64,000 bases of DNA. Origin: Christiangramia sediminis. Lineage in GTDB: Bacteria > Bacteroidota > Bacteroidia > Flavobacteriales > Flavobacteriaceae. Where the stretch lies: assembly GCF_020552705.1 (NCBI RefSeq), contig NZ_JAJBZG010000005.1:186001-250000 (forward strand). Reading direction: 5' to 3'. Position 1 is the stretch's first letter. Every line of letters starts with the position of its first letter. A program made the translations under genes and the position numbers. Below, piece after piece: positions 1 through 12,148 of this stretch. The notes under the pieces were generated by a model. That model ran no database searches, was not told where the DNA came from, and saw only the letters and a list, made by a program, of their open reading frames with translations.

Positions 1-823
1 CTTTTTTTAGGTTAACACCTAAAACTTCTACTACTTCTCCTCCCCCATCAATGTTCAAATTCGGAAGATTATTATAGTGATTACCTAATTGACCAACCTG
101 ATCCTTTAGTTCCCTACTCAGGTGTTTATAAGTAAGTTCAAAGTAATCATCCAATTCTTTCATTTTAGATGAGAATCCAGATATACTATTCCGAAGAGAA
201 AAAAGGTATTTTATGTATTCGGGGTCTCTTTCATATAGCGGCTGGTACTCATCATCCAGAAGCTTATCACTTCCTTCCTGAAATCCTGCTAAATCGAATT
301 TATTTGCGGAAGTAAAGAAAAGAGTTGACGGAGACGTTCCTCCGATAATGTTTAGAGGTTCCGGACCTCTGGTATAGTTGATTAAATAGAGTTTCTCCAG
401 GGAATCAAAATTATAAGTCTGGGCATCTTGCTCTAAGTATAACCTTAAGCTCTCACCCAGGAGTTTATGTTGTGGATTAGGAGAATTAATCAATTGATCA
501 AGATCTGTCCTTCTATCCCAGCTTATAATTTCTATTTGATCCTTATATTTATCTGCATTGAAAAAGATCTGACCAATATCCAAGGCATCAGAAACCATTT
601 TATGAAAGGTTGTATTTCCTTCCGGCCCTAAATTGGCAACTTCCTTAAATGCAGTCTTAACCAGGTCAATTCTTGCATAAGGACTAGGAATGGAAGTTAT
701 TTCTCTACTGGAGTGAGCTCCATTTGGATCTTCAATTGCGTTTATGGCAACCGAATTCAAGGGATTAGAATCTTCCCATCCTTTTAAATTTTTTCCACTA
801 TGAAATCTAAAAACGTATGCCAT
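1..823 (-). CDS. Conserved protein of the tubulin-like operon, partial (C-terminus off the window)
   Basis: The frame is open from an ATG at 823 to the left edge, about 274 codons beginning MAYVFRFHSG, so the C-terminus is missing. I recognise no catalytic motif. Residues near 43-61 (SIPSPYARIDLVKTAFKEV) look strongly constrained, and the N-terminus resembles uncharacterised Bacteroidota proteins that I recall beside tubulin-like genes. There is no signal peptide or membrane segment, so it should be cytoplasmic. Its start lies 2 bp after the stop of the tubulin-like gene, so the two are probably co-translated and act together. The function is unknown. Confidence 0.8.
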   Translation of the reverse strand, partial: MAYVFRFHSGKNLKGWEDSNPLNSVAINAIEDPNGAHSSREITSIPSPYARIDLVKTAFKEVANLGPEGNTTFHKMVSDALDIGQIFFNADKYKDQIEIISWDRRTDLDQLINSPNPQHKLLGESLRLYLEQDAQTYNFDSLEKLYLINYTRGPEPLNIIGGTSPSTLFFTSANKFDLAGFQEGSDKLLDDEYQPLYERDPEYIKYLFSLRNSISGFSSKMKELDDYFELTYKHLSRELKDQVGQLGNHYNNLPNLNIDGGGEVVEVLGVNLKK

Positions 824-825
824 AA

Positions 826-2223
826 TTATAATTTGTATTTGTCAGCCATTAACTTATCAGTTGTCTCGTAAAAGACTTCCAGGAACCTATTTTCGATGCT
901 ATCAGAAGTATTCATTTTCTTTGCTTCTTTATTTAAAAAAGCAGTTATACGCTCATAATCTTTCGTTTTTTCCAAAAAACCTTTGTGAGCCTTAAATCCT
1001 TTTATTCCATCAAAAATATCCTGACCTGTAGACATCGTGTAAGGTGCAAATCCTCTTTGATTATTACTCATTTGCTGAAGCCAATTCCAGTAGTAATCAT
1101 TGAATTTGGATAGTTTTCTATAAAAATCTTCGTTGAGGAATGGTTCCTTAATTTTAAGTGTTTTAGCGAAATCTGCACTCAGATTAGACCTAAGTTGATT
1201 CTTTAGATATAGGTGGAAAAAGTAATATTTGCTTAGCGGTTTTACTAAATCCATCTTAGTCTCATCCCCTAAATCATTAAATGTTATACTAGGTGTCTCA
1301 TTTTCAACTCCAAATTCCTTGACCTTATTGGATGAAACATCGGTATCATTAGCAAAATCTAAAATAGCAAGAGCAGATGCCAATTCAATAAAATGAGCAT
1401 CATTCTGCTGAGACACACTTCCTTCATTATTTTCATAATCCTTAACCAGTTTATCTCCGAGATAATACATGGAGTTTACTGAATCATTCACTCCATATTC
1501 ATAATACCTAAGAGCTGCCTTTGTTTTAGAAATAAAAGTAGATTTCTCTATCTCGCTTTCATCATCTTTTTTAACTCCAAAATAAGGTAGAACCGATACT
1601 GCTCCTACAGGTGCAGTTTGTAATAGAGAATGATTATTGAGGTTTGGACTGGCAGATCTTATATTTTTAAGAAGTAGGGGAAAGCCTGCTGCTCCGGTTC
1701 CCCCAAAAATTGATGAGATAATAAATATTCTATCTCCTTGTGAAAAGCTACTTGCAAAATTTTCGAAATCCTCAGAAGTATTGAATTGGTTCAAAACAAC
1801 ACTCCCCATATTGGGATTACCCTTAAACCCAACTTCAAGATCGGCATCCAGATTCTTCTTACTAAACAGTAATGAAATAAGAGCCTTATTTTTTTTATCC
1901 AGGCCCTGGTAATCAATAAACTCTTTAAATTTTTTCTTTGAGTCCTGGATATTGATCCTGCAATTCTTGCTTAAAGGTTCTATTGGGGTCTTAAAAAATT
2001 CATTAGAGGTTTCTCCATCAAAAGATAATTTTTCCCTGACACTCTTATATCGCTGAAGAATATCTACTGTTTTATTAACATCTCCATTTGCAGCATCGGG
2101 ATCAATTAGCATTGGAATTACTGATGAACTATTGCATCTAACACCTGCTGCTAATAAAAATGAAAGTGACTTTAATACCCTGGCACCAGTTCCTCCAATA
2201 CCAAAAACATATAATTTAGACAT
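826..2223 (-). CDS. Tubulin/FtsZ-superfamily GTPase-like protein
   Basis: This 465-residue cytoplasmic protein opens with a Rossmann-type strand and glycine loop (YVFGIGGTGA, residues 5-14), matching the start of FtsZ. It then carries IIS-SIF-GGTGAAG (residues 168-180), the counterpart of the tubulin/FtsZ signature GGGTGTG that binds GTP phosphates. The segment LIDPDAANGD (39-48) sits where FtsZ has its second nucleotide loop. It is too diverged to be FtsZ and lacks the FtsZ C-terminal tail peptide. It looks like the tubulin-like families proposed for membrane remodelling (FtsZl families of Makarova and Koonin). It lies 11 bp after a small membrane protein gene and 2 bp before the next gene. 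GTP binding and polymerisation are inferred. Confidence 0.75.
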   Translation of the reverse strand: MSKLYVFGIGGTGARVLKSLSFLLAAGVRCNSSSVIPMLIDPDAANGDVNKTVDILQRYKSVREKLSFDGETSNEFFKTPIEPLSKNCRINIQDSKKKFKEFIDYQGLDKKNKALISLLFSKKNLDADLEVGFKGNPNMGSVVLNQFNTSEDFENFASSFSQGDRIFIISSIFGGTGAAGFPLLLKNIRSASPNLNNHSLLQTAPVGAVSVLPYFGVKKDDESEIEKSTFISKTKAALRYYEYGVNDSVNSMYYLGDKLVKDYENNEGSVSQQNDAHFIELASALAILDFANDTDVSSNKVKEFGVENETPSITFNDLGDETKMDLVKPLSKYYFFHLYLKNQLRSNLSADFAKTLKIKEPFLNEDFYRKLSKFNDYYWNWLQQMSNNQRGFAPYTMSTGQDIFDGIKGFKAHKGFLEKTKDYERITAFLNKEAKKMNTSDSIENRFLEVFYETTDKLMADKYKL

Positions 2224-2234
2224 AGGTTATTTTA

Positions 2235-2657
2235 TTAAAATGGAACATAAGATGAGTGAGAACTTTTCCATTTAAATAACATGGAAAATAAAAACATTAA
2301 AAGTACAGTCCACATGGAATTTATGATTGAAAATACCATCATATCTGAAGTAAAAGAGGCCGGAACTGCAGACCCAACGGAAGCAAAAATTTCGGTCAAA
2401 TCATTATTGGCCGAAACAAAAGCTATGATAAAGTTAATTATAGCTCCAACCAGCAAGTTTAAAGACCATATACTAAGCTTCGCTGTTCCAGGTCGATCTA
2501 CAACATAATAATATGCGATAGTTAAAATCAGTGCTACAATAATGGAGTAAAGAGCTACAGAAAAATATAAATCATTATTATACATCTGTTCTGAAAAGTC
2601 ACCTAAATAAGCTCCTCCCCATAGTTCATAGAAATTTGCGATAAAATCTTTTAGCAT
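2235..2657 (-). CDS. Small multi-pass membrane protein of the tubulin-like operon
   Basis: This 140-residue protein has three clear hydrophobic spans (about residues 32-52, 63-83 and 104-127), a soluble N-terminal stretch rich in aromatic residues, and a short basic C-terminal tail. I do not recognise the family. It sits 11 bp after the lipoprotein gene and 11 bp before the tubulin-like gene, so it is a natural membrane anchor linking the cytoplasmic GTPase-like protein to the envelope lipoprotein. That role is inferred from position only. Confidence 0.75.
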   Translation of the reverse strand: MLKDFIANFYELWGGAYLGDFSEQMYNNDLYFSVALYSIIVALILTIAYYYVVDRPGTAKLSIWSLNLLVGAIINFIIAFVSANNDLTEIFASVGSAVPASFTSDMMVFSIINSMWTVLLMFLFSMLFKWKSSHSSYVPF

Positions 2658-2668
2658 TTTTTGGTTGT

Positions 2669-4003
2669 TTAATTTTGAATTACTGGTATGGTGATATTAA
2701 AATATTTATTGCTTCCACTTTGCTGTTCATAAGCCTCAGATATTCCTGAAACAAGATGACCAAAACTGAAAGTTTTAGTTTGTTCAAGTGAGTCGGACTT
2801 AATCTCGCGGTCATCATCACTATTAGCTTTTTCAACCCAATGCGGAATTCTTTTCTGTAATGAAAAATTGAGATTTTCCGATACAAGGCCATCAGCAGAA
2901 AACTTAATAGCATGTGTGTACTTTTCTCCTTTTATATCTACTAATGTTGAAGGATCCATTTTTACAACACCAGATTTCGAAAATTTTATATTCTTCCCCT
3001 TTACAACTCCTACTTCATTTATGCCGAATTCTGGATTAGAAAGTTTATAATTTTCCCCGTCCAAAATATAACTTTGACTCACAGGCAATTTTTCCATATT
3101 CACTAAAGCTATGAATTCAAGGTTTCCAGTTCTGGGGTAACTCATCACTTCCAGATCCCCTCCTCTCGTTTTAATTCGGCCGTTTACTCCGGAAGTTATT
3201 ACTTTTACTGGTAGTGAATTATAATTAGAACCAGTAAATAACGCTTCATTTTCGAAGCCTGAATTGTCTTTAAGTTGTGAAGCAATCTCTGAGTTAAAAA
3301 GACTCATCAAATTTCTGGGGCCGATGACTATATAATAAAATGGCCGTTGATCTATATTTGTGATTTTTCTATTGTTATAATCGTAATAAATACCATTAAA
3401 ATCACTAGCAAATCGATAAATTCTGGTATCGAGATCCTGATTTTTCCCAGCTTTCAAAAAAGCATCCTGAGTATATGTTTTAAGCTTATCTAAAGCTGAA
3501 GGAACATTTGATTCTCCCTCAGGGGAATAAATAAAGTCTGCCATTATTACTGATAAAGCATCACCTTCCTGGTTCTCAAGAATTTTATCCAGTATTTCTT
3601 CAAAATCACTATTTCCTTTATTTCCTTTTCCAGCTGTATTTTGTGGGGTAAGTTCTTCAGAAATCTTAGTATTATCAACTCCAAAATCAGTATGAGTTAA
3701 CTTATCGTTTATAAGAAAAAACTCAGTATTAAAGTCAATTTCATCTTCATTTTCAACGGCTACTAATAAATCACGAAATACATTTTTAAAACCAGTATTT
3801 CCATTTATGTAGCCATCCATACTAAGTGTATTTTCAAAATAAATTTTGACAGTGGCATCAACTGGAGTGTCGGAAGTAACAGCAGGGGTTACATTAGTTG
3901 GAGGAGTCTGTGGTGTTTTATTACCTCCCCCTCTACCTCCTTCACAGGAACTAAGAGTCGATAAAAATGCGCAAAGAAAAATTGCAGCAAAGAATTGCTT
4001 CAT
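2669..4003 (-). CDS. Lipoprotein with degenerate vWA-like domain
   Basis: This 444-residue protein has a signal peptide and lipobox (STLSSC, Cys20), then a Gly/Pro/Thr-rich linker. The main domain begins VKIYFENTLSMDGY (about 52-65), where a von Willebrand A domain would carry its DxSxS metal site, followed by a helix and later ALSVIMADFIYSP (about 153-165), in the place of the second MIDAS strand. The metal-binding residues are not canonical, so I call it vWA-like and degenerate. It is the first gene of the four-gene operon; 295 bp of AT-rich DNA separates it from the next upstream gene. It would be exposed in the periplasm or at the outer membrane. Confidence 0.7.
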   Translation of the reverse strand: MKQFFAAIFLCAFLSTLSSCEGGRGGGNKTPQTPPTNVTPAVTSDTPVDATVKIYFENTLSMDGYINGNTGFKNVFRDLLVAVENEDEIDFNTEFFLINDKLTHTDFGVDNTKISEELTPQNTAGKGNKGNSDFEEILDKILENQEGDALSVIMADFIYSPEGESNVPSALDKLKTYTQDAFLKAGKNQDLDTRIYRFASDFNGIYYDYNNRKITNIDQRPFYYIVIGPRNLMSLFNSEIASQLKDNSGFENEALFTGSNYNSLPVKVITSGVNGRIKTRGGDLEVMSYPRTGNLEFIALVNMEKLPVSQSYILDGENYKLSNPEFGINEVGVVKGKNIKFSKSGVVKMDPSTLVDIKGEKYTHAIKFSADGLVSENLNFSLQKRIPHWVEKANSDDDREIKSDSLEQTKTFSFGHLVSGISEAYEQQSGSNKYFNITIPVIQN

Positions 4004-4298
4004 TCTGATTGTAGGTTAGTTAGTAATCGGTGTAGGGATAGCATAATTAATCTTTTTTTATGACTCTTCCAAAATTTATGTTAATATGCAATCATCATTT
4101 AAGTAATTTTCCAAAGAATTTAATTTTATAAAGATTCTAAAATCTTTTTTATTTCATTAAATATCTGACAATTAAATCTCCTCATGGATTCTGGTTATTA
4201 TAAGCTTTTTTACAGATGTTAAATTTTTTCTTAATTACTATCTGTGAATTATTAAGTGCTTGTTTACATTAAAATAATCTTGATTTTACATTCTTTAA

Positions 4299-4502
4299 TT
4301 AAACTCCTCCCGCCATAGTCATTAGTATATTCAGGACTAAACCTATTCCAAAACCCCATAAGGCAGCATGACAGGCAGACCTTGCGCTATTCGGTTGGGT
4401 ATCCTTTTTTGAGAAATACACAACAGCACCAGCCAGAGGTATACAGAAGGATAAAATTGTTAATCCGGTTCCAAGTTCATCTCTATGGTTATTATTGGAC
4501 AT
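4299..4502 (-). CDS. Small two-TM membrane protein
   Basis: A 67-residue protein with two hydrophobic segments (about 12-29 and 46-64) separated by a polar loop containing KKDTQPNSAR. It starts 10 bp downstream of the DUF2085 gene on the same strand and is probably co-transcribed. The layout resembles small CCC-motif or DUF4190-like membrane proteins of Bacteroidota, but I cannot name the family. The function is unknown. Confidence 0.65.
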   Translation of the reverse strand: MSNNNHRDELGTGLTILSFCIPLAGAVVYFSKKDTQPNSARSACHAALWGFGIGLVLNILMTMAGGV

Positions 4503-4512
4503 ATATAATAAT

Positions 4513-4854
4513 TTAGGTTAGTGATAATATTAAATTTCCAATTTGTTTTCCCCAGATGGATATTAGAGACATACAGCCGATACCAGCGGCTAACCCAGTT
4601 ATAAACCTTACCACATTTGTACTTTCCCAATTAGAAAATGCCTGGGTTAAACCATCAATTATCGTTGGAAGCATAATAAGTAAACTTAACCATAGGCTAA
4701 GAGTAAAATAACTGAACAAAAAAATCGGAAAGCTTAAATAGCCGATATGGATACCCGTGCATCTCGCACAAACCGGGAATTGTTTACCCTTAAAGCAAAA
4801 AGACCTTTCAGGTAATTGATGGCAAAAAGAAAACTCCAGTTTTTTACTAAACAT
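4513..4854 (-). CDS. DUF2085 family membrane protein
   Basis: This 113-residue protein carries the DUF2085 hallmark: an N-terminal [10 protein letters not shown] (about 10-19), then G[16 protein letters not shown] (about 26-39), with Cys and His residues that look like a metal or redox site, followed by three hydrophobic spans. The family is widespread and of unknown function. It is the first gene of a two-gene minus-strand unit with the small membrane protein downstream. Confidence 0.8.
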
Positions 4855-4946
4855 TTGATCTGTTCAATATCCAGTTGTAAAACTAAGGCCAACTAAAAAG
4901 AAGATCATACGGTTTCCCGTAAAATGAGAAATTAATCAAGTAAAAT

Positions 4947-5597
4947 TTAGTTCTTGACGTATTTATCAATCATATATTTTGTAATTGGTTTTAAGGTTTT
5001 TCCACTTACAGGATGTTTTCCTGGAGATGAGAAATACTCCAATTCACCATTACTTTTATAGTACCAAATTCGAACTTCACCATTTTTAAAAAAAGTTGTG
5101 GTCTCAGAAACTTCAACTTTTTTGAGGTTATTATAGGTATTTGGAATAAACTTTTGTTCTTCACTGCGTCCGCTGCATTCAGTTTTGATATAATGATCAT
5201 TATTCCAGATCATACATTCTTCCTTCCCTGATATGTAACCCAAATATGATGAAGTAGCTACCACCATAAGAAAGCTTAAAGCAACTATTAATTTCTTATT
5301 GGAAAATAGATGAATCTTCTTTTTTTCTTCAAGTTCGTCCATTTGGTTGGAAGTAGAATTCCATTGTATATAGATATCATAACTCTCATAGCCTAAATAC
5401 TGAGCTAAATAATCTTTTACTTTTTGATTTGGAGATGACTCACCTTTATAATATCGGGTTAGGGATTTTGTGGAAATCGAATATCTGAACTTTTCAAAGA
5501 TATATTCTGATAAAAATTCTGCATTTGCATTGATTGAGTCCTTTTCTGTTTCACTTTCTGCCTTTTTAAAAGCCGCATTAATTATTTGGTGGGTCAT
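4947..5597 (-). CDS. Membrane-anchored protein with helical N-terminal domain
   Basis: A 216-residue protein with a soluble helical N-terminal region (about 1-80). Its motif SISTKSLTRYYKG resembles the recognition part of a small helix-turn-helix found in uncharacterised Bacteroidota proteins. One TM segment follows (about 103-123, VALSFLMVVATSSYLGY), then a C-terminal extracytoplasmic domain with a Cys pair and a YFSSPGKHP segment. The layout (putative DNA- or protein-binding domain, one TM, outer sensor) suggests a one-component signalling role, which is inference. It is divergent from the peptide/TPR-kinase cassette, and the TGTCTA repeats lie just upstream of its start. Confidence 0.65.
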   Translation of the reverse strand: MTHQIINAAFKKAESETEKDSINANAEFLSEYIFEKFRYSISTKSLTRYYKGESSPNQKVKDYLAQYLGYESYDIYIQWNSTSNQMDELEEKKKIHLFSNKKLIVALSFLMVVATSSYLGYISGKEECMIWNNDHYIKTECSGRSEEQKFIPNTYNNLKKVEVSETTTFFKNGEVRIWYYKSNGELEYFSSPGKHPVSGKTLKPITKYMIDKYVKN

Positions 5598-5658
5598 TAC
5601 TTAGAAATTCAGCTATGTAAAACTAAGAAATCTATTGGACATTCTGCCTGGACAAAAA

Positions 5659-5686
5659 TGTCTAAAGTTTGTCTAGATCTTGTCTA
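5659..5686 (+). promoter_or_regulatory. Three TGTCTA direct repeats at 11-bp spacing (putative operator)
   Basis: TGTCTA occurs at 5659-5664, 5670-5675 and 5681-5686, exactly 11 bp apart (about one helical turn), so all three would face the same side of the DNA. Two further TGGACA sequences lie at 5636-5641 and 5649-5654. A weak promoter-like pair follows (TTG at 5690-5692, TTACTTTG at 5709-5716). The site lies between the divergent gene at 4947-5597 and the signalling cassette starting at 5871. The likely binder is the LuxR-type regulator at 8030-8695; that is inference. Confidence 0.5.
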
Positions 5687-5870
5687 TCCTTGACCATACT
5701 ACCCTTATTTACTTTGCCCTATGATTGATAAATCAGTAAAACTTACAGGGAAGTAAAGTACTTCTGGTTTATCAACTCATGACTTCCCAGTAGCTCATTT
5801 CTGAGCTTAAAATCGAGAAATCCACATAAGTCGGGTTAACAATCTAATGTCAATTTTCAAAATCTAAGTC

Positions 5871-6041
5871 ATGAAAAGAATCAGTCTATTACTATTATTT
5901 CTTATTTCAAATTTATCTATTATTTCTTGCACTGAACAAAGTTTAGCCGATGCTACTAACGCACCTCAAAAGGAATATGCTACTGAAGGTGAAGAGGATC
6001 CCAATGACCCCTCTCATGAACCACCTGGTGATGGTAATTAA
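5871..6041 (+). CDS. Small lipoprotein (56 aa), candidate signalling peptide precursor
   Basis: The ORF encodes 56 residues. It starts MKRISLLLLF and has a hydrophobic signal sequence ending IISC (Cys20), a good lipobox. The mature 37 residues are highly acidic and end DPNDPSHEPPGDGN. It is followed at once by an intrinsic terminator and then the TPR sensor kinase, all on the same strand. A tiny secreted product ahead of a kinase with a periplasmic TPR sensor suggests a ligand or accessory subunit. It is too short for a family call. Confidence 0.6.
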   Translation: MKRISLLLLFLISNLSIISCTEQSLADATNAPQKEYATEGEEDPNDPSHEPPGDGN

Positions 6042-6055
6042 CCTTGGATAATAAA

Positions 6056-6080
6056 GGCCGCTTTTTTAGCGGCTTTTTTT
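6056..6080 (+). terminator. Intrinsic terminator between small lipoprotein and kinase
   Basis: GCCGC (6057-6061) pairs with GCGGC (6069-6073) across a T-rich loop, and seven or more T residues follow. The kinase ATG is at 6096, only about 16 bases after the T-run, so kinase transcription must either read through this hairpin or start inside or beyond it. Confidence 0.75.
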
Positions 6081-6095
6081 ATTTATTTTCGCTTT

Positions 6096-8021
6096 ATGAA
6101 TTCGCGCTCCTTTTTTCACACGCTACTATTTATTGGTTTACTTACATTTAATTCCTGCACAACAAATAATGATTCGATTAATCATTTCGAATCTGAAAAC
6201 AAAGAGTCTTATAAATATTTTGAAAAAGGTAAGGTTGAAAAAAATGTCAGAGAAAAAATCTCATATTTTAATAAGGCTCTTCAAACACTGAGAGACAAAA
6301 CAGATACTCTTATCCCTGACATTCTTGATTATAAAATATATTATCACGTTACCTTGAAGGAATATGACAGTACGCTTTATTTCTCAGACTCCCTTATTAA
6401 CGTAGCGAAGGCACAAAAGGACTCTGGCTATATTGCAAAAGGTTTCTATCGAAAATCTACAACATTTAGAGCCCTGAATCAAAATGAAAAACAATTTGAA
6501 AACGCTTATGCTGCACGTGAAATTTATTTAAAAATTGGTGATACTGCCAATGCCGGCCGCAGAACTGTTGAAATGGCTATCGCCCAGAGTCAAATGACCG
6601 ACTATACCGGAGCACAGCAAACAGCTACCGAAGCCCTGGAATATCTGGAAGAAGATGATTCCGAATATTTAAGCAGCATCTACAATACCATTGCAACCTC
6701 CTACAGGAGTCAGGGTTTATACAATGATGCAACAAACGAATGGAGAAATGCTCTTAAATACGCTTCCACTACGCGAGACAGCCTAAGTAATTTGAATAAT
6801 ATTGCACTTGCTCTTCAAGACGGAAAAACATACGGTGAAGCAATAAAAATTTTTGAAAATATTGTTGAAACATCTAATCGCACAGATGTAAAGTCAAGGG
6901 CTAGATTTATAGATAATCTGGCCTATACAAAATGGCTGCAGGATTCTTCAGCACTTGTCCGTGATGAGTTGTTGATGGCAAAGGAAATCAGGAGAAAGGA
7001 GAATGATGAGAATGGTCTTTTAGCCAGTTATGACCATCTTTCAGATTATTTTAGATATAAGAATACAAACCTTTCAAAAATATACGCAGATAGTCTACTA
7101 ATAACTGCAATTAATACCGGCAGTAAGACTGCCCAGCTAAACGCAATACAGAAACTGATACAACTTTCTCCAGCTAAGAAATTAAAAGATCTTTCAAATA
7201 GATATATACAATTAAATGATAGTATCAGGTCTGAAAATATCCGGGCGAAGAATTTCTTTGCCAAGATCAGGTATGATGAGGAACAAAAACAAAGAGAGAT
7301 TAATGATCTGGAGGCACAATCTGCCTTACAAAAATTGGAGACTAAACAAATACAAAATCAAATGATCATCCTCTCTCTCGGTGGATTACTGGTTTTAGTA
7401 AGTGGAGGATTCGGATTTTATTATTTGAGACAGAAGCATAAAAAGGAAAAGATAAGGGAAGCCCACCATACAGAATCCAGAATTTCCAAGAAGATCCATG
7501 ATGAGCTGGCCAATGACGTTTATAACGTGATGAGTAGTATGCAAACCATTGTTCCAAGTGACATGATGGACAAACTGGAACATATTTATAATCGCACCCG
7601 GAATATCTCCAGGGAAAATAGCAGTATCCCTACCGGAACATATTACCTGCCTCATTTACTCTCCACGCTAAGCTCTACAGTGCCAGACGAGGCTCGATTG
7701 ATCCTTCGGGGTGAAAACAGCATCAACTGGAGCAGCTTGGCTCCTGAAAAAAAGATCATTCTTTACAGGGTGCTTCAGGAGATCATGATCAACATGAAAA
7801 AGCATAGCAACGCGAGTCTAGTAGCGGTGATCTTTTCCGAAGAAAAAAATTACCTGAATATCAATTATTCCGATAATGGAATGGGTGCATCTATGAAAAG
7901 CCTGAAAACCGGAAATGGGATACTGAATATGGAAAACCGTATTCTTTCTATCAATGGAAAACTTAATTTTGAAACCGAACAGGGTAAAGGATTGAAGATT
8001 TTGATCCAGGTTCCATTATAA
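6096..8021 (+). CDS. TPR-domain sensor histidine kinase (HisKA_3 type)
   Basis: This 641-residue protein begins with a lipoprotein-like signal (LTFNSC, Cys21). A long helical region with TPR-type repeats (about 35-390) follows and should lie in the periplasm. There is a short coiled coil, one TM span (about 423-444), and a cytoplasmic kinase. The phosphoacceptor is His468 in KKIHDELANDVYN, the HisKA_3 pattern, and the HATPase end contains NMKKHSN, DNGMG and TGNGILNM. The response regulator starts 8 bp after its stop, so they form a two-component pair. The TPR sensor probably binds a peptide or protein, perhaps the small lipoprotein encoded just upstream (inference). Confidence 0.88.
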   Translation: MNSRSFFHTLLFIGLLTFNSCTTNNDSINHFESENKESYKYFEKGKVEKNVREKISYFNKALQTLRDKTDTLIPDILDYKIYYHVTLKEYDSTLYFSDSLINVAKAQKDSGYIAKGFYRKSTTFRALNQNEKQFENAYAAREIYLKIGDTANAGRRTVEMAIAQSQMTDYTGAQQTATEALEYLEEDDSEYLSSIYNTIATSYRSQGLYNDATNEWRNALKYASTTRDSLSNLNNIALALQDGKTYGEAIKIFENIVETSNRTDVKSRARFIDNLAYTKWLQDSSALVRDELLMAKEIRRKENDENGLLASYDHLSDYFRYKNTNLSKIYADSLLITAINTGSKTAQLNAIQKLIQLSPAKKLKDLSNRYIQLNDSIRSENIRAKNFFAKIRYDEEQKQREINDLEAQSALQKLETKQIQNQMIILSLGGLLVLVSGGFGFYYLRQKHKKEKIREAHHTESRISKKIHDELANDVYNVMSSMQTIVPSDMMDKLEHIYNRTRNISRENSSIPTGTYYLPHLLSTLSSTVPDEARLILRGENSINWSSLAPEKKIILYRVLQEIMINMKKHSNASLVAVIFSEEKNYLNINYSDNGMGASMKSLKTGNGILNMENRILSINGKLNFETEQGKGLKILIQVPL

Positions 8022-8029
8022 TTTTTGTT

Positions 8030-8695
8030 ATGTTTAGAAAAGTTCTGGTTGCCGAAGATATGGACAGCATCAATCAGGCGGTGGCTGTAGTACTCAAAGA
8101 TCTTGGTATTGCGGAAGTGGCACATTCCCAGTATTGTGATCAGGCCTGGCTGATGGCAAAAAAGGCCATCCAGGAAAACGAAGCTTTCGACCTGCTTATC
8201 TGTGACCTTTCGTTTAAACAGGATCACCGGGATGAAAAGATAAGCTCAGGCCAGGAACTTATAGCCCTCCTTAAAAAAGAAGATCCCAAGCTAAGGATCA
8301 TTGTGAATTCTATTGAAGACCATCCGCAAACGGTAAAGGATTTATGGAATTCTGGAAATATCGATGCGTATGTATGCAAAGATCGCCATGGACTCAAAGA
8401 ATTAAAGGAAGCAATTCTACATTTGAATAATGGTGAATCCTATAATTCCCCTTCCATCGAAAAAATTCTAAATCAAAATAATATCCTGACATTAAATGAT
8501 TTTGAAATCAATATTGTAAAGTATCTCGCCAATGGCTTCACCCAGGATCAGATTCAACAGGAATTAAAAAATAAAAACATTAAACCCAGTAGTAAAAGTG
8601 CTATCGAAAAACGTTTAAAAGAGCTACGGGAAGAATTCAGCGCCAATACCAATCCGCATCTTATCGGGATTATGAAAGATTTGAAGTTAATATAA
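8030..8695 (+). CDS. Response regulator, REC plus LuxR-type HTH
   Basis: A 221-residue protein. The receiver domain has the acidic pair AED (residues 8-10), phosphoacceptor Asp59 in LLICDL, and the conserved Lys in YVCKDRHG. The C-terminal part (about 150-221) has the shape of a GerE/LuxR helix-turn-helix (FEINIVKYLANGFTQDQI, then SAIEKRLKELRE). It is the partner of the TPR kinase 8 bp upstream. A diverged copy of its last 25 codons lies 850 bp downstream. Its target may include the TGTCTA repeats at 5659-5686. Confidence 0.88.
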   Translation: MFRKVLVAEDMDSINQAVAVVLKDLGIAEVAHSQYCDQAWLMAKKAIQENEAFDLLICDLSFKQDHRDEKISSGQELIALLKKEDPKLRIIVNSIEDHPQTVKDLWNSGNIDAYVCKDRHGLKELKEAILHLNNGESYNSPSIEKILNQNNILTLNDFEINIVKYLANGFTQDQIQQELKNKNIKPSSKSAIEKRLKELREEFSANTNPHLIGIMKDLKLI

Positions 8696-8758
8696 GCAAG
8701 TGCCAGTTATAAGTTTCAATTATCCGATTTATTCGAAGATAAACTGTACACCTGGATA

Positions 8759-9226
8759 TTATTCATTCATAAATATTTCTTCAAAATTTTCTTCAAGTAT
8801 ATTTATTTCCTGATCCCCTAATTCCTCAAAATGCTTTTCCTTTTTCTTCTTAGATAATTTTCCGCCATTCTGATCCAGAAATTTAATCAGCAAATCAACC
8901 TTTGTATCAGGCAAACTAGTATACTCATTGATAAACTGGGTCATTCGATCATATTTTTCAAGATAGTCTAATTCAGCAGGTATAATTTTTTCAATAGTAT
9001 CTTCTACACAGTCATATAAAAATTCAGCTTGTTTGGTTAAGTCATAATACCGGTAGATATCTATAGTATCATTTAATATTTCCACATTATGATCTGGAGT
9101 AGCTTTCCAGTCAATTAAATCCACCCTTGGGCTGGAATAATGCTCCAATGTATCCTGATATTCGTCGATGCGCTCTAAAATTGCCGAAGAAACCGGAAAG
9201 ATCATCCCCCGTTTAGTGTATCCCAT
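8759..9226 (-). pseudogene. C-terminal remnant of a Fic-family protein
   Basis: The 155-residue frame matches the C-terminal third of Fic-domain adenylyltransferases: GYTKRGMIFPVSSAIL, LNDTIDIYRYYD, AEFLYDCVEDTI, then PDTKVDLLIKFLDQNGGKLS. The catalytic HPFxxGNGR core and the N-terminal domain are absent. Fic-like coding continues upstream of the Met for about ten codons (RYILDR before MGYTKRG) and then meets a stop near 9255, which marks the breakpoint. It cannot be an active AMP-transferase. It lies in a scar between an intact regulator, a decayed regulator copy and a recombinase. Family placement is from memory of the family pattern. Confidence 0.75.
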
Positions 9227-9566: not shown

Positions 9567-10820
9567 TTAAGATTCTTTCTTTCTTAAAAGTTGCTTTTCT
9601 AAAGCTTCCATATCCCTCCCCACTTTCTCATCGAGCACCTTTGCGTAAATCTGCGTAGTTTTTAAAGATTTATGCCCAAGCATCTTCCCAACCGATTCAA
9701 TTGGGACACCCTTAGAAAGGGTTACCGTGGTCGCAAAGGTGTGGCGGGCTAAATGAGTGGTTAAATTCTTTTTAATGCCGCACACGTCAGCTATTTCCTT
9801 TAAATAGGCATTAGACTTTTGGTTGGTAAGAACAGGCAAGATTATATTCTTAATTTTCACTTGGGGATGATCTTTATACTTCTCAATTATAGAAGCTGGA
9901 ACGTCCAGCAAAGGAATACTACTCAAAGATTTTGTTTTCTGCCGCTTCGTTTTGATCCATTTTTTACCATTCATCCCCAAAACAATATCATCTTCAGACA
10001 GCTTTTTTACATCAGCAAAGGCTAAACCGGTATAACAACAAAATAGAAAGATATCCCGTACTAAATCCAAACGCGGCATATCAAATTCAGCCTCCACCAT
10101 TTTCTGCAGTTCCAGGTCAGTTAAATATTCACGCTCCGCAGATTTCCAGGTGCTTTTCCAGTGGAAGAAAGGATCCTTGTCTATCCATTGATTAGCATAA
10201 GCGATTCGAATAATCTTTTTAAAGTTTACGATATATTTTAGTGCCGTGTTGTGAGCACAGTCTTTCTGTGATTTTAAGTAATGATCAAAACCAGTGATAA
10301 ACTTATGATCGACATCCTGAACAGGAATATCTTTCTTCTTATAAGAAAACAACAGATAGTTCTCAATATGATTTTTACAGGCATTATAGCGTTGCATAGT
10401 GCCTTTGGTGAAACCCTTACCAATTAGGTTTTCCATTTGGTCATTATGCTCCTGAAAAATATCCAAAAGCATTCTTTCCTGCTCATCCCCTTTGCCAAAA
10501 TAAATATCCCTGATAATCTTGGCGGAAACTGGTTGGTTATCTCTCATTAACCTATCGTGGATATCATACAGCTTGGAACGGATAGAATCAAGATATCTAT
10601 TAATAGCCCTGGATTCATCGGAAGTACCTTTAGCTATACTTCCTTGTTTATTCCATTTTCGGACCTCAATTTGCCTGCCAGTGCTAAATTCAGATCGCTT
10701 TCCATTAATAGTAATCCGGGTGTAAATTACTGAAACTCCATCTGCTGTTGATCTTCCACGTTTAAGGTAAAAAAGAATGTTTAGTAAAGTTGCCATAGGT
10801 GCGTCTTTTAAATTGCTCAC
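9567..10820 (-). CDS. Tyrosine-type site-specific recombinase (integrase)
   Basis: A 417-residue protein with the Bacteroidota layout: an N-terminal arm-binding region (NILFYLKRGRSTADGVSVIY), a SAM-like core-binding domain (about 110-215), and a catalytic domain with FCCYTGLAFADV, HLARHTFATT (His-x-x-Arg), LGHKSLKTTQIYAKV (His and nucleophilic Tyr). The position usually held by the first catalytic Arg (TGLR) is Ala, as I recall for CTnDOT-type integrases. The start is uncertain: Met9 (10796) gives the usual MATLLN beginning, and the GGTGCGTCTTTT repeat lies in codons 4-8 of the longer form. Its 3' end faces the decayed regulator fragment 21 bp away. Confidence 0.88.
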   Translation of the reverse strand: MSNLKDAPMATLLNILFYLKRGRSTADGVSVIYTRITINGKRSEFSTGRQIEVRKWNKQGSIAKGTSDESRAINRYLDSIRSKLYDIHDRLMRDNQPVSAKIIRDIYFGKGDEQERMLLDIFQEHNDQMENLIGKGFTKGTMQRYNACKNHIENYLLFSYKKKDIPVQDVDHKFITGFDHYLKSQKDCAHNTALKYIVNFKKIIRIAYANQWIDKDPFFHWKSTWKSAEREYLTDLELQKMVEAEFDMPRLDLVRDIFLFCCYTGLAFADVKKLSEDDIVLGMNGKKWIKTKRQKTKSLSSIPLLDVPASIIEKYKDHPQVKIKNIILPVLTNQKSNAYLKEIADVCGIKKNLTTHLARHTFATTVTLSKGVPIESVGKMLGHKSLKTTQIYAKVLDEKVGRDMEALEKQLLRKKES

Positions 10821-11025: not shown

Positions 11026-11049
11026 AGTGTTACTTTGAGTTTCAATAAG

Positions 11050-11123
11050 CGGTCTGGACGAGACTCGAACTCGCGACCCCCTGCGTGACAGGCAGGTATT
11101 CTAACCAACTGAACTACCAGACC
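11050..11123 (-). tRNA. tRNA-Asp (anticodon GTC)
   Basis: On the minus strand the cloverleaf is complete: acceptor GGTCTGG (from 11123) pairs with CCAGACC, the D arm contains AGTTCAGTTGGTTAGA, the anticodon stem CCTGC/GCAGG holds loop CTGTCAC with anticodon GTC, and the T arm contains GTTCGAGTC. The discriminator base is G at 11050. CCA is not encoded. tRNA genes are common insertion targets and the recombinase lies just downstream, but I see no duplicated tRNA 3' end. Confidence 0.95.
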
Positions 11124-11209: not shown

Positions 11210-12148
11210 CTATCCAAACTTTTGTTTTTCAAGTAAATAAGCGGTCATAATATTGTCAAAATTTTTATTGATGTCTGCCTCGACATACTTTATACGGTAC
11301 TTCGCACATTGCATTTTAAGATCGGCCAAGTATTTTTCTACCGCTTTTTTATAATTCTCCCTGATATTATCTGAATAAAGATCTACTTCAGCTCCCGTTT
11401 CCACATCGGTAAATCTTCGCGGGGTATTCTCAAAACTGAAATTAAGCTCTCTTTTCTCATCTATTACATGAAAAAGGATCACTTCATGCCGGTTATATTT
11501 TAAATGTCTTAAAGCTTCAAATAATCTTTCCTCGTCGGCATCTGCCTGGAACATATCGGTAAAAAGAAAGATCAGCGATCTGCGCTTTAATTTTTCGGCG
11601 ATCTGGTGCAAATAAGTATAGGTATCTGTATTCTTCCTTTTGGCTGAACCAGTTAAGATCTCGTTCAGCTTATTCAAAAGCATATGATGATGCCGCTCAC
11701 TGGACTTCTCTGGCGAGTAGAATTCAAATTCATCGCTATATATACTTACACCCACAGCGTCTCTCTGGCGCTTTAAGACCTCCATTAGACAGGCCGAGGC
11801 CAGAACCGAAAATCCTATTTTATTCAGCGAATCAAGGTTCTGCTCTTTTACCGCCGGATAATGCATCGAAGCAGAGTTATCTAAAATCAAATGGCATCTT
11901 AGATTCGTCTCTTCCTCATAACGTCTTGTATACAACTTATCGGTCTTGGCAAAAAGCTTCCAGTCGATATGCCGCGTACTTTCCCCGTTATTATAGATCT
12001 TATGTTCGGCGAATTCCGCAGAAAAGCCATGAAACGGACTCTTATGTATCCCTGAAATATAACCTTCCACTACCTGTTTCGCCAGAAGGTCGAGGTTGAG
12101 AAATCCGCCGGTTTTATGAAGTTCCTTTTCTATATTCATAGCAGGCAT
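11210..12148 (-). CDS. DUF58 domain protein (vWA-like)
   Basis: This 312-residue protein has the DUF58 motif RHIDWKLFAKTDKLYTRRYE (about 59-78), followed by a vWA-type strand LILDNSASMHYP (Asp90, Ser92, Ser94) and IFLFTDMF, so the metal site is intact. DUF58 proteins usually sit beside MoxR ATPases and Bat proteins, but neither is next to this copy; it lies after thioredoxin with a terminator between. It may start at Met1 or Met4. It is likely a chaperone-like or regulatory protein acting with a MoxR partner encoded elsewhere (inference). Confidence 0.85.
   Translation of the reverse strand: MPAMNIEKELHKTGGFLNLDLLAKQVVEGYISGIHKSPFHGFSAEFAEHKIYNNGESTRHIDWKLFAKTDKLYTRRYEEETNLRCHLILDNSASMHYPAVKEQNLDSLNKIGFSVLASACLMEVLKRQRDAVGVSIYSDEFEFYSPEKSSERHHHMLLNKLNEILTGSAKRKNTDTYTYLHQIAEKLKRRSLIFLFTDMFQADADEERLFEALRHLKYNRHEVILFHVIDEKRELNFSFENTPRRFTDVETGAEVDLYSDNIRENYKKAVEKYLADLKMQCAKYRIKYVEADINKNFDNIMTAYLLEKQKFG

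What the first reader, a model, noticed from the sequence alone, without database searches (positions are those of the whole stretch)
1..4003. Four-gene operon around a tubulin-superfamily protein
Four minus-strand genes with gaps of 11, 11 and 2 bp encode a vWA-like lipoprotein, a three-TM protein, a protein with the tubulin/FtsZ GGTGAAG loop, and a conserved cytoplasmic protein. Together they span envelope, membrane and cytoplasm, as a membrane-remodelling or transenvelope machine would. Tubulin-like families with such neighbours have been proposed for membrane remodelling, but I know of no experimental role for this set. It is next to signalling and recombination genes, and could also be a defence-type locus.
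Basis: partly seen in the sequence, partly recalled or inferred. Interest (0 to 1): 0.85.

Follow-up and report, generated by a model that had tools for sequence, protein, structure and literature searches.

The report
Motor–tubulin–actin operon with exported nucleases
A mobile gene island in a bacterium of the Bacteroidota carries a cell-envelope machine that joins a rotary-motor pair, a tubulin-like and an actin-like protein to interchangeable exported proteases and DNA-cutting enzymes, most probably a defence against viruses that still has to be tested.

Summary
The four genes are real, but they are only the front end of a larger operon. Among solved structures the motor pair matches ZorA/ZorB of the Zorya anti-phage system best. 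Where the sequence reaches far enough, 79 of 79 loci have the ATPase gene behind the tubulin gene, 78 of 79 the lipoprotein and three-TM genes before it, and 59 of 75 both motor genes. In 46 of 60 motor loci the next gene is a mostly exported protein of one of three unrelated protease-type folds; in 19 of these 46 a nuclease of one of three unrelated folds follows directly. The operon sits in a 49.9-kb integrase island at tRNA-Asp with 23-bp end repeats (site empty in 10 of 11 congeners), together with Type I restriction and McrBC genes. Best reading: a Zorya-like, envelope-sensing immune system with effectors outside the cytoplasm. Gene content, swapping and mobility are shown; function and mechanism are inferred. 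Structure prediction was not obtained.

The parts
2669..4003 (-). lipoprotein with vWA/MIDAS-like ExSxS motif, first gene of the operon
   Evidence: alignment of 71 homologues, invariant E57, S61, D156; motif 72 of 81
2235..2657 (-). three-TM membrane protein
   Evidence: median 3 TM-like stretches in 85 homologues
826..2223 (-). tubulin/FtsZ-superfamily protein (T1 GGTG, T3-like GNPN.G, T4 GGTGAAG)
1..823 (-). N-terminal quarter of a 1,119-aa actin/Hsp70-type ATPase; the whole gene is G000:C1:183464-186823 (L002:10464-13823:-). The operon goes on to the left, outside the window: L002:9147-10448 signal peptide+TM protein; 8707-9144 split MotA TM1; 7376-8689 MotA/ZorA-like; 6732-7376 MotB/ZorB-like; 5977-6735 HtrA-like lipoprotein; 5392-5973 SNase lipoprotein; 5024-5353 TM protein; 2701-5010 and 1670-2671 DnaJ-domain proteins (all minus strand; L002 position = window position + 13000)
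9567..10820 (-). tyrosine integrase of the island
   Evidence: Pfam Arm-DNA-bind_5, Phage_int_SAM_5, Phage_integrase
11049..11123 (-). tRNA-Asp (GTC), integration target
11049..11071 (.). 23-bp attachment repeat, right end of the island; second copy at G000:C1:147182-147204
   Evidence: empty sites in congeners

Best explanation
A mobile, Zorya-like anti-phage (or anti-foreign-DNA) system that works in the cell envelope. Shown by sequence: one operon encodes a lipoprotein, a three-TM protein, a tubulin-superfamily protein, an actin/Hsp70-type ATPase, a bitopic protein, a MotA/MotB-like pair with the motor Asp and an OmpA-type domain, and then a protease and a nuclease with export signals, whose folds are swapped between loci; it lies on an integrase island with restriction genes. 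Inferred: the wall-anchored motor (with the lipoprotein and the bitopic protein) senses a breach of the wall, as is hypothesised for Zorya; the signal reaches the cytoplasm through the MotA tail and triggers, or is gated by, nucleotide-driven assembly of the tubulin-like and actin-like proteins; the assembled machine releases or activates the exported protease, which unleashes the exported nuclease on DNA crossing the envelope. The order of the last steps is a guess.
For: Core linkage 78/79 and 79/79, both motor genes 59/75. MotB profile: best PDB match ZorB type I 8vvn_B, E 1.2e-14, then ZorB 8qyd 3.8e-8, then MotB 7.9e-5; MotA profile: best match ZorA 8vvn_C, E 2.1e-8; PADLOC ZorB 1.1e-11 and ZorA 5e-6 for the window genome's own proteins. 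Motor Asp motif 63/64, OmpA-type S-Y/F-x-R-A/S motif 63/64. Gene behind MotB in 60 loci: HtrA 25, retropepsin-like 16, transglutaminase-like 5, NucA 5, other same strand 5, opposite strand 3, end 1, median gap -4 bp for each of the three protease types. Folds confirmed by Pfam on representatives: SNase 2, EEP 4, NucA 1, retropepsin 2, HtrA 1, transglutaminase all 6. N-terminal export-type signals: HtrA 23/27, Asp 17/18, TGase 5/6, SNase 11/13, EEP 12/13, NucA 9/9, against ATPase 0/85 and tubulin 12/88. The slot's type changes at least 11 times on a quick tubulin tree of 59 loci, the nuclease type 8 times. Patchy: 9/249 family, 3/346 order, 13/395 phylum genomes, the window's own genome included each time. 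Island and empty sites. PADLOC families in flanks 218 against 7 in control stretches. Zorya sensing hypothesis: passages of PMC12904381.
Against: No phage challenge exists; PADLOC hits of the core are weak ZorA/ZorB only, and the NCBIfam Zorya cut-offs are missed by far (22.7 of 700 and 24 of 400 bits). 16 of 75 loci with room lack a recognised MotB and 6 of 75 a recognised MotA. No nuclease of the three kinds was recognised in 41 of 70 loci with 10.5 kb after the tubulin start, no protease of the three kinds in 24 of 70 (sequence often ends there). Behind the 46 proteases the next gene is another gene in 23 (17 same strand, 6 opposite). Restriction genes were recognised beside a minority of loci. 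Two cyanobacterial plasmids carry the tubulin/ATPase core without recognised motor or effectors, so the core can do something without them. The location of the enzymes rests on signal-like N-termini only.
Confidence: 0.55

Rival explanations
1. Membrane-remodelling or vesicle machine: tubulin- and actin-like polymers with a motor reshape the envelope; protease and nuclease are accessories.
For: Tubulin-superfamily protein with vWA-like and OmpA-type partners as in FtsZl1 operons; transenvelope parts; core found without recognised effectors in two cyanobacterial plasmids.
Against: Rare and patchy, here on an integrase island whose site is empty in 10 of 11 congeners; fold-swapping of protease and nuclease is hard to explain by remodelling.
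Confidence: 0.17
2. Barrier mainly against plasmids, conjugative elements or free DNA: the exported nuclease degrades DNA in transit, the motor/polymer part controls when it is active.
For: Nucleases of three folds with export signals in one region of the operon; island setting with restriction genes.
Against: The elaborate motor is better explained by sensing of phage entry; no direct test.
Confidence: 0.13
3. Envelope-stress or interbacterial-antagonism machine: exported protease and nuclease act on damaged envelope material or on neighbours.
For: HtrA-like proteases and DnaJ-domain genes; lipoprotein-type effectors.
Against: No immunity-gene pattern or secretion apparatus was noticed in the maps, though neither was searched for; restriction neighbours fit defence.
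Confidence: 0.1

Closest known systems
Zorya anti-phage system (ZorAB with ZorCD, ZorE or ZorFG)
   Same: MotA/MotB-like pair nearest to ZorA/ZorB among solved structures; OmpA-type domain and conserved Asp in the MotB-like protein, long hydrophilic MotA tail; nuclease effectors; island with defence genes
   Different: No match to ZorC/D/E/F/G models in the ten proteins scanned; effectors carry export signals; adds tubulin-like, actin-like, vWA-like lipoprotein and protease; a TM-like stretch ends the MotA tail in 48 of 60 loci; MotA is split into two genes here
FtsZl1 / Tubulin_2 operons (Makarova and Koonin 2010, PMC2875224)
   Same: Tubulin-superfamily GTPase domain with T1 and T4 loops, vWA-like partner, OmpA-domain partner, membrane proteins; their alignment included a Bacteroides caccae protein
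   Different: The text read (parts 1 and 2 of 5, plus a term search) names no MotAB-type motor, Hsp70-type ATPase or protease/nuclease module; the window protein is below the Tubulin_2 cut-off
DO-GTPase/GAP1-N2 conflict systems with tubulin, vWA or HSP70 (Kaur et al. 2020, PMC7159879)
   Same: Tubulin, vWA and HSP70-type components with variable effectors
   Different: No DO-GTPase or GAP1 named model matched the ten operon proteins; MotA, MotB, TolQ and SNase do not occur in the main text of that paper
Trypsin-NucA systems ('System 3' of PMC7159879)
   Same: Protease paired with NucA endonuclease
   Different: Here the protease may also be retropepsin- or transglutaminase-like and the nuclease SNase- or EEP-type, tied to a motor/polymer core

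Membership tests
Zorya | ZorA and ZorB homologues | tested here: inconclusive
   Homology clear (PADLOC 5e-6 and 1.1e-11; PDB profile 2.1e-8 and 1.2e-14) but NCBIfam equivalog cut-offs missed (22.7 of 700 and 24 of 400 bits)
Zorya | type-specific effector ZorC/ZorD, ZorE or ZorF/ZorG | tested here: not met
   no such model matched any of the ten operon proteins scanned at E<=0.1; the DnaJ-domain proteins at the tail were not scanned with PADLOC
Zorya | conserved Asp in the ZorB TM helix and peptidoglycan-binding domain | tested here: met
   Asp motif 63/64 and S-Y/F-x-R-A/S motif 63/64; alignment; binding itself untested
Zorya | long cytoplasmic ZorA tail | tested here: inconclusive
   a long hydrophilic stretch follows the core TMs, but 48 of 60 MotA proteins have a TM-like stretch near the C-terminus; no coiled-coil program was run
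Zorya | protection against phage | not testable with these tools
   needs plaque assays
FtsZl1 / Tubulin_2 | FtsZ/tubulin GTP-binding loops in order | tested here: met
   T1 87/88, T4 88/88; Pfam Tubulin 78/79 and Tubulin_2 77/79 at E<=0.01; T3-like GNPN.G aligned to FtsZ GANPE.G
FtsZl1 / Tubulin_2 | score above the Pfam cut-off | tested here: not met
   window protein 22.2 of 27 bits; search of six genomes that carry the gene with the Pfam model found none at E<=0.001, while 3 of 14 control genomes rang
FtsZl1 / Tubulin_2 | tubulin fold | tested here: inconclusive
   profile against cell-division FtsZ weak (E 0.16, probability 0.4), best PDB sequence match 3zid E 0.043; the AlphaFold job failed
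FtsZl1 operon | vWA-domain partner | tested here: inconclusive
   ExSxS motif 72/81; Pfam vWA in 1/71; no match to the window's own vWA-motif protein at 11210-12148
DO-GTPase/GAP1 systems | DO-GTPase and GAP1 proteins | tested here: inconclusive
   no DO-GTPase or GAP1 named model in ten operon proteins at E<=0.1; whether the libraries hold such models was not checked
Trypsin-NucA systems | trypsin-like protease plus NucA endonuclease | tested here: not met
   the window genome has HtrA + SNase; HtrA with NucA in 3 of 70 loci

The most novel reading that the evidence does not exclude
An immune system that destroys phage DNA outside the cytoplasm: a wall-anchored ion-driven motor, coupled to both a tubulin-type and an actin-type polymer, fires an exported protease that activates an exported nuclease; the effector slot is a cassette position in which unrelated proteases and nucleases are exchanged.
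Probability: 0.35. Interest if true: 0.93.

Novelty: new variant of a known kind. Interest (0 to 1): 0.8.

Why it matters
It ties the open FtsZl1 question (what are these tubulin relatives for?) to the Zorya question (how does a rotary motor signal phage attack?) in one compact, testable operon, and it points to exported nucleases as effectors, i.e. defence before phage DNA reaches the cytoplasm. Actin-family and tubulin-family proteins as fixed neighbours of a stator-type motor would also interest cytoskeleton evolution. If the reading is right, some hundreds of uncharacterised loci (407 relatives of the tubulin gene in one scan, of which 80 were looked at) gain a likely function.

Tried and rejected
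Membrane remodelling as the main reading: lowered, see rivals. The two-component pair (window 6096-8695) as part of the system: the regulator or the kinase has relatives near 8 loci each (L013 and L089 being one contig; control 0), but the regulator matches 58 of 80 family genomes, many only distantly, far more than carry the operon, so it is not specific. TM145 as a separate component: rejected, it is the detached first TM of the MotA subunit (hhalign probability 97, E 1.1e-10 to the MotA N-terminus; probability 0.7 to the bitopic protein). The transglutaminase profile grew into the retropepsin family (25 hits); only the six proteins labelled best by it were kept, and all six match Pfam Transglut_core. 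In one search the rows p155, McrC, McrB and p359 repeat a previous model because their own was empty; they are disregarded. Carriage by phages: the Bacteroides acidifaciens tubulin-like protein found no match in 50,697 phage records (the window protein was not used). The profile match of the tubulin family to cell-division FtsZ is weak (E 0.16; reversed control 0.54).

Limits: the 80 loci are the best of 407, so chosen for similarity. The 89 loci compared are these 80, eight loci and the window's own; the further relatives (L021, L022, L104-L117) were not added. ORFs were called by a simple greedy script and export signals by a hydropathy rule. Near-copies exist (L013 and L089 are one contig, L057/L060/L068 nearly identical), so k of n are loci, not events. 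Seven of the 80 record titles are not Bacteroidota (Acetatifactor, Oscillibacter, Williamsia, Bacillota, Sulfuricurvum, two Leptospiraceae); some may be mis-binned contigs. Some matches are distant (one of 3, three of 13). The PADLOC comparison took ORFs of 200 aa or more from 15 genomes; of 186 flank ORFs 3 that matched the operon profiles were dropped, and 112 of 183 flank and 110 of 157 control ORFs were scanned; its unit is model families, of which several can hit one protein. The tree is a quick one without bootstraps.
Full report
WHAT IS THERE. The window starts inside the operon: it is G000:C1:186001-250000. Sequence to the left (L002; ORFs) shows that the fourth gene is 1,119 aa long, and that it is followed on the same strand by a 433-aa signal-peptide/TM protein, a 145-aa single-TM protein, a 437-aa MotA-like protein, a 214-aa MotB-like protein, a 252-aa HtrA-like lipoprotein, a 193-aa staphylococcal-nuclease lipoprotein, a 109-aa TM protein and two DnaJ-domain proteins (Pfam).

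IDENTITIES. Tubulin-like: Pfam Tubulin in 78 of 79 and Tubulin_2 in 77 of 79 members at E<=0.01, best 5.1e-7 and 4.5e-8, the window protein itself under both cut-offs; T1 loop in 87 of 88, T4 in 88 of 88; the conserved GFKGNPNxGS lines up with the FtsZ T3 stretch GANPE.G, though that profile match as a whole is weak (E 0.16). ATPase: its profile matches MreB (6.2e-4) and, weakly, Hsp70 (0.017) and FtsA (0.054) around the phosphate-2 loop; D(I/V)GGG in 71 of 74, DFG(T/S)(T/S)N in 54 of 74 and an adenosine-type SGx(G/A)S in 66 of 74; the first half of the protein has no Pfam match. MotB: best solved relative ZorB type I (8vvn_B, 1.2e-14); MotA: best ZorA (8vvn_C, 2.1e-8), followed by unrelated helical proteins. 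The motor Asp and nearly invariant Thr/Ser of the MotA helices are kept, in line with what PMC11890865 describes for ZorAB (abstract, introduction and the first of two parts of the structure section read); that these Thr/Ser are the same ring is inferred. The 145-aa protein is the MotA TM1 on its own gene: its profile aligns to the MotA N-terminus of loci without that gene (probability 97); MotA is 431-464 aa in the 11 loci with it and 487-583 aa in 46 of 49 without. The lipoprotein has a MIDAS-like ExSxS and a later invariant Asp, but a vWA fold is not shown.

ELSEWHERE. A profile scan of 84,980 genomes found 407 relatives, of which the best 80 were fetched, 73 with Bacteroidota titles; with eight loci from the first family search and the window's own this gives 89 loci, 88 with a complete tubulin ORF. 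Core order is constant: of loci with enough sequence, 78 of 79 have the lipoprotein and three-TM genes before the tubulin gene, 79 of 79 the ATPase behind it, 69 of 75 MotA, 59 of 75 MotB, with median gaps of 2.5 to 11 bp. Against this, L019, L020 and several others lack the motor, and L099 has other ORFs between tubulin and ATPase genes.

THE EFFECTOR SLOT. Behind MotB in 60 loci stand HtrA-like 25, retropepsin-like 16, transglutaminase-like 5, NucA 5, another same-strand gene 5, opposite strand 3, end of sequence 1. Behind the 46 proteases follow directly SNase 10, EEP (DNase I-like) 7, NucA 2, EEP on the other strand 1, a further MotB 1, another gene 23, end 2. In 70 loci with 10.5 kb after the tubulin start, the protease classes exclude each other in all but one (HtrA 23, Asp 16, TGase 6, both HtrA and Asp 1, none 24); nucleases anywhere in the locus were SNase 9, EEP 7, NucA 7, EEP on the other strand 3, EEP with SNase 2, SNase on the other strand 1, none 41. 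In 300 kb of control sequence from 15 of the genomes (266 ORFs), the same profiles hit EEP 0, NucA 0, SNase 0, Asp 0, TGase 0, HtrA 2 times. Export-type N-termini: HtrA 23/27, Asp 17/18, TGase 5/6, SNase 11/13, EEP 12/13, NucA 9/9. Catalytic motifs: HtrA GSSGG-type 25/27, Asp DTGA-type 18/18, SNase DGD 12/13 but the R..GID.PE-type motif only 8/13, EEP QE 12/13, GDFN 11/13 and SDH 12/13, NucA RGH 7/9 (some are fragments at locus ends). On a quick tubulin tree of 59 loci the slot label (three proteases or NucA) needs 11 changes (least possible 3; shuffled mean 22.7) and the nuclease label 8 (no shuffles made): swapped repeatedly, though clustered.

MOBILITY. A tRNA-Asp lies at window 11049-11123 beside the integrase. 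A 23-bp piece of its 3' end is repeated at C1:147182, bounding 49,867 bp. In 10 of 11 congeners the left-flank match (62 to 213 bases) and the right-flank match meet in one 23-bp overlap, i.e. the site is empty; in the eleventh, G928, the left match is only 35 bases at one copy and 23 at the other, so it is unclear. The operon itself was not searched in these congeners. The island also holds HsdR, McrC, McrB and a DUF4917 protein and genes that I read as HsdS and HsdM. The system is patchy: 9 of 249, 3 of 346 and 13 of 395 genomes, each count including the window's genome. Integrase genes lie near 9 of 89 loci, often just before the operon, and in 1 of 15 control stretches. Flanking proteins matched 218 PADLOC families at E<=1e-15 against 7 in controls. 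Restriction genes were recognised beside a minority: HsdM in 4 loci, N6_Mtase, Methylase_S and GmrSD_N in 2 of 112 flank proteins each.

WIDER CORE. Six plasmid records carry tubulin relatives. Two cyanobacterial ones were examined (L169; L170, 47.5 kb, mobilisable): they carry vWA-like, TM, tubulin-like and ATPase genes without a recognised motor. L171 (Prevotella) has the core and no recognised motor either. So the tubulin/ATPase core is more general, and the motor plus exported enzymes is a module of the common Bacteroidota form.

KNOWN OR NEW. FtsZl1 (PMC2875224; parts 1 and 2 of 5 read, plus term search) already linked tubulin relatives, vWA and OmpA-domain proteins and included Bacteroides caccae. 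PMC7159879 (passages) describes GTPase-centred conflict systems with tubulin or HSP70, and trypsin-NucA systems; MotA, MotB, TolQ and SNase do not occur in its main text. PMC12505986 (passages) treats ZorAB as a remote branch and does not contain 'tubulin'. PMC12904381 (passages) names Zorya, Kiwa and SNIPE as membrane-embedded nuclease systems; 'tubulin' is there only in a reference and 'periplasm' not at all. Searches pairing Zorya, ZorA, anti-phage or MotA with tubulin, vWA or periplasmic-nuclease terms, and one for Tubulin_2 names, listed no paper whose title or abstract start describes this combination; only open-licence papers are searched and most listed papers were not opened. I therefore call it a new variant of a known kind, with the bolder reading kept as the novel case.

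MECHANISM. Shown: gene content, conservation, swapping, export-type signals, mobility. Inferred: wall sensing by the motor (from the Zorya hypothesis), polymer coupling (from the tubulin and actin superfamilies), proteolytic activation of the nuclease (from the gene pair and from what PMC7159879 proposes for protease-effector systems), and DNA in the envelope as the target. Confidence 0.55 for the defence reading as stated. Structure prediction was attempted but not obtained.

Noticed in passing
window 6096-8695: TPR histidine kinase and response regulator inside the island; relatives of one or both lie near other loci of the system (8 loci each, one contig counted twice), but the regulator is common in the family (58 of 80 genomes) and may mark a favoured insertion neighbourhood.
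   Followed up: partly
L086:18837-20093: An FtsZ-like gene of 418 aa directly behind the operon in Bacteroides acidifaciens, 48-51% identical to the longer (600-750 aa) FtsZ of 12 other genomes; perhaps an extra FtsZ or a decoy, or simply the host gene.
   Followed up: partly
window 4947-5597: 216-aa protein without a Pfam match; relatives lie upstream of the operon in 5 other loci and none in control stretches; possible regulator.
   Followed up: partly
L030:17827-18081; L018 and L015 tails: Small exported Cys-rich proteins with a similar Cys/His pattern recur near the effector slot.
   Followed up: no
L013:13714-15471; also L091, L096, L043, L055, L072: 585-616 aa proteins with hydrophobic stretches at both ends, between or in place of motor genes; unidentified, perhaps a distinct subclass of the system.
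   Followed up: no
L002:1670-5010: Two DnaJ-domain proteins, one with DUF805, end the operon-like run; DnaJ-type genes also follow the slot in L035 and L057.
   Followed up: partly
L118:2851-3528: Sir2-family protein in the flank of one relative locus.
   Followed up: no
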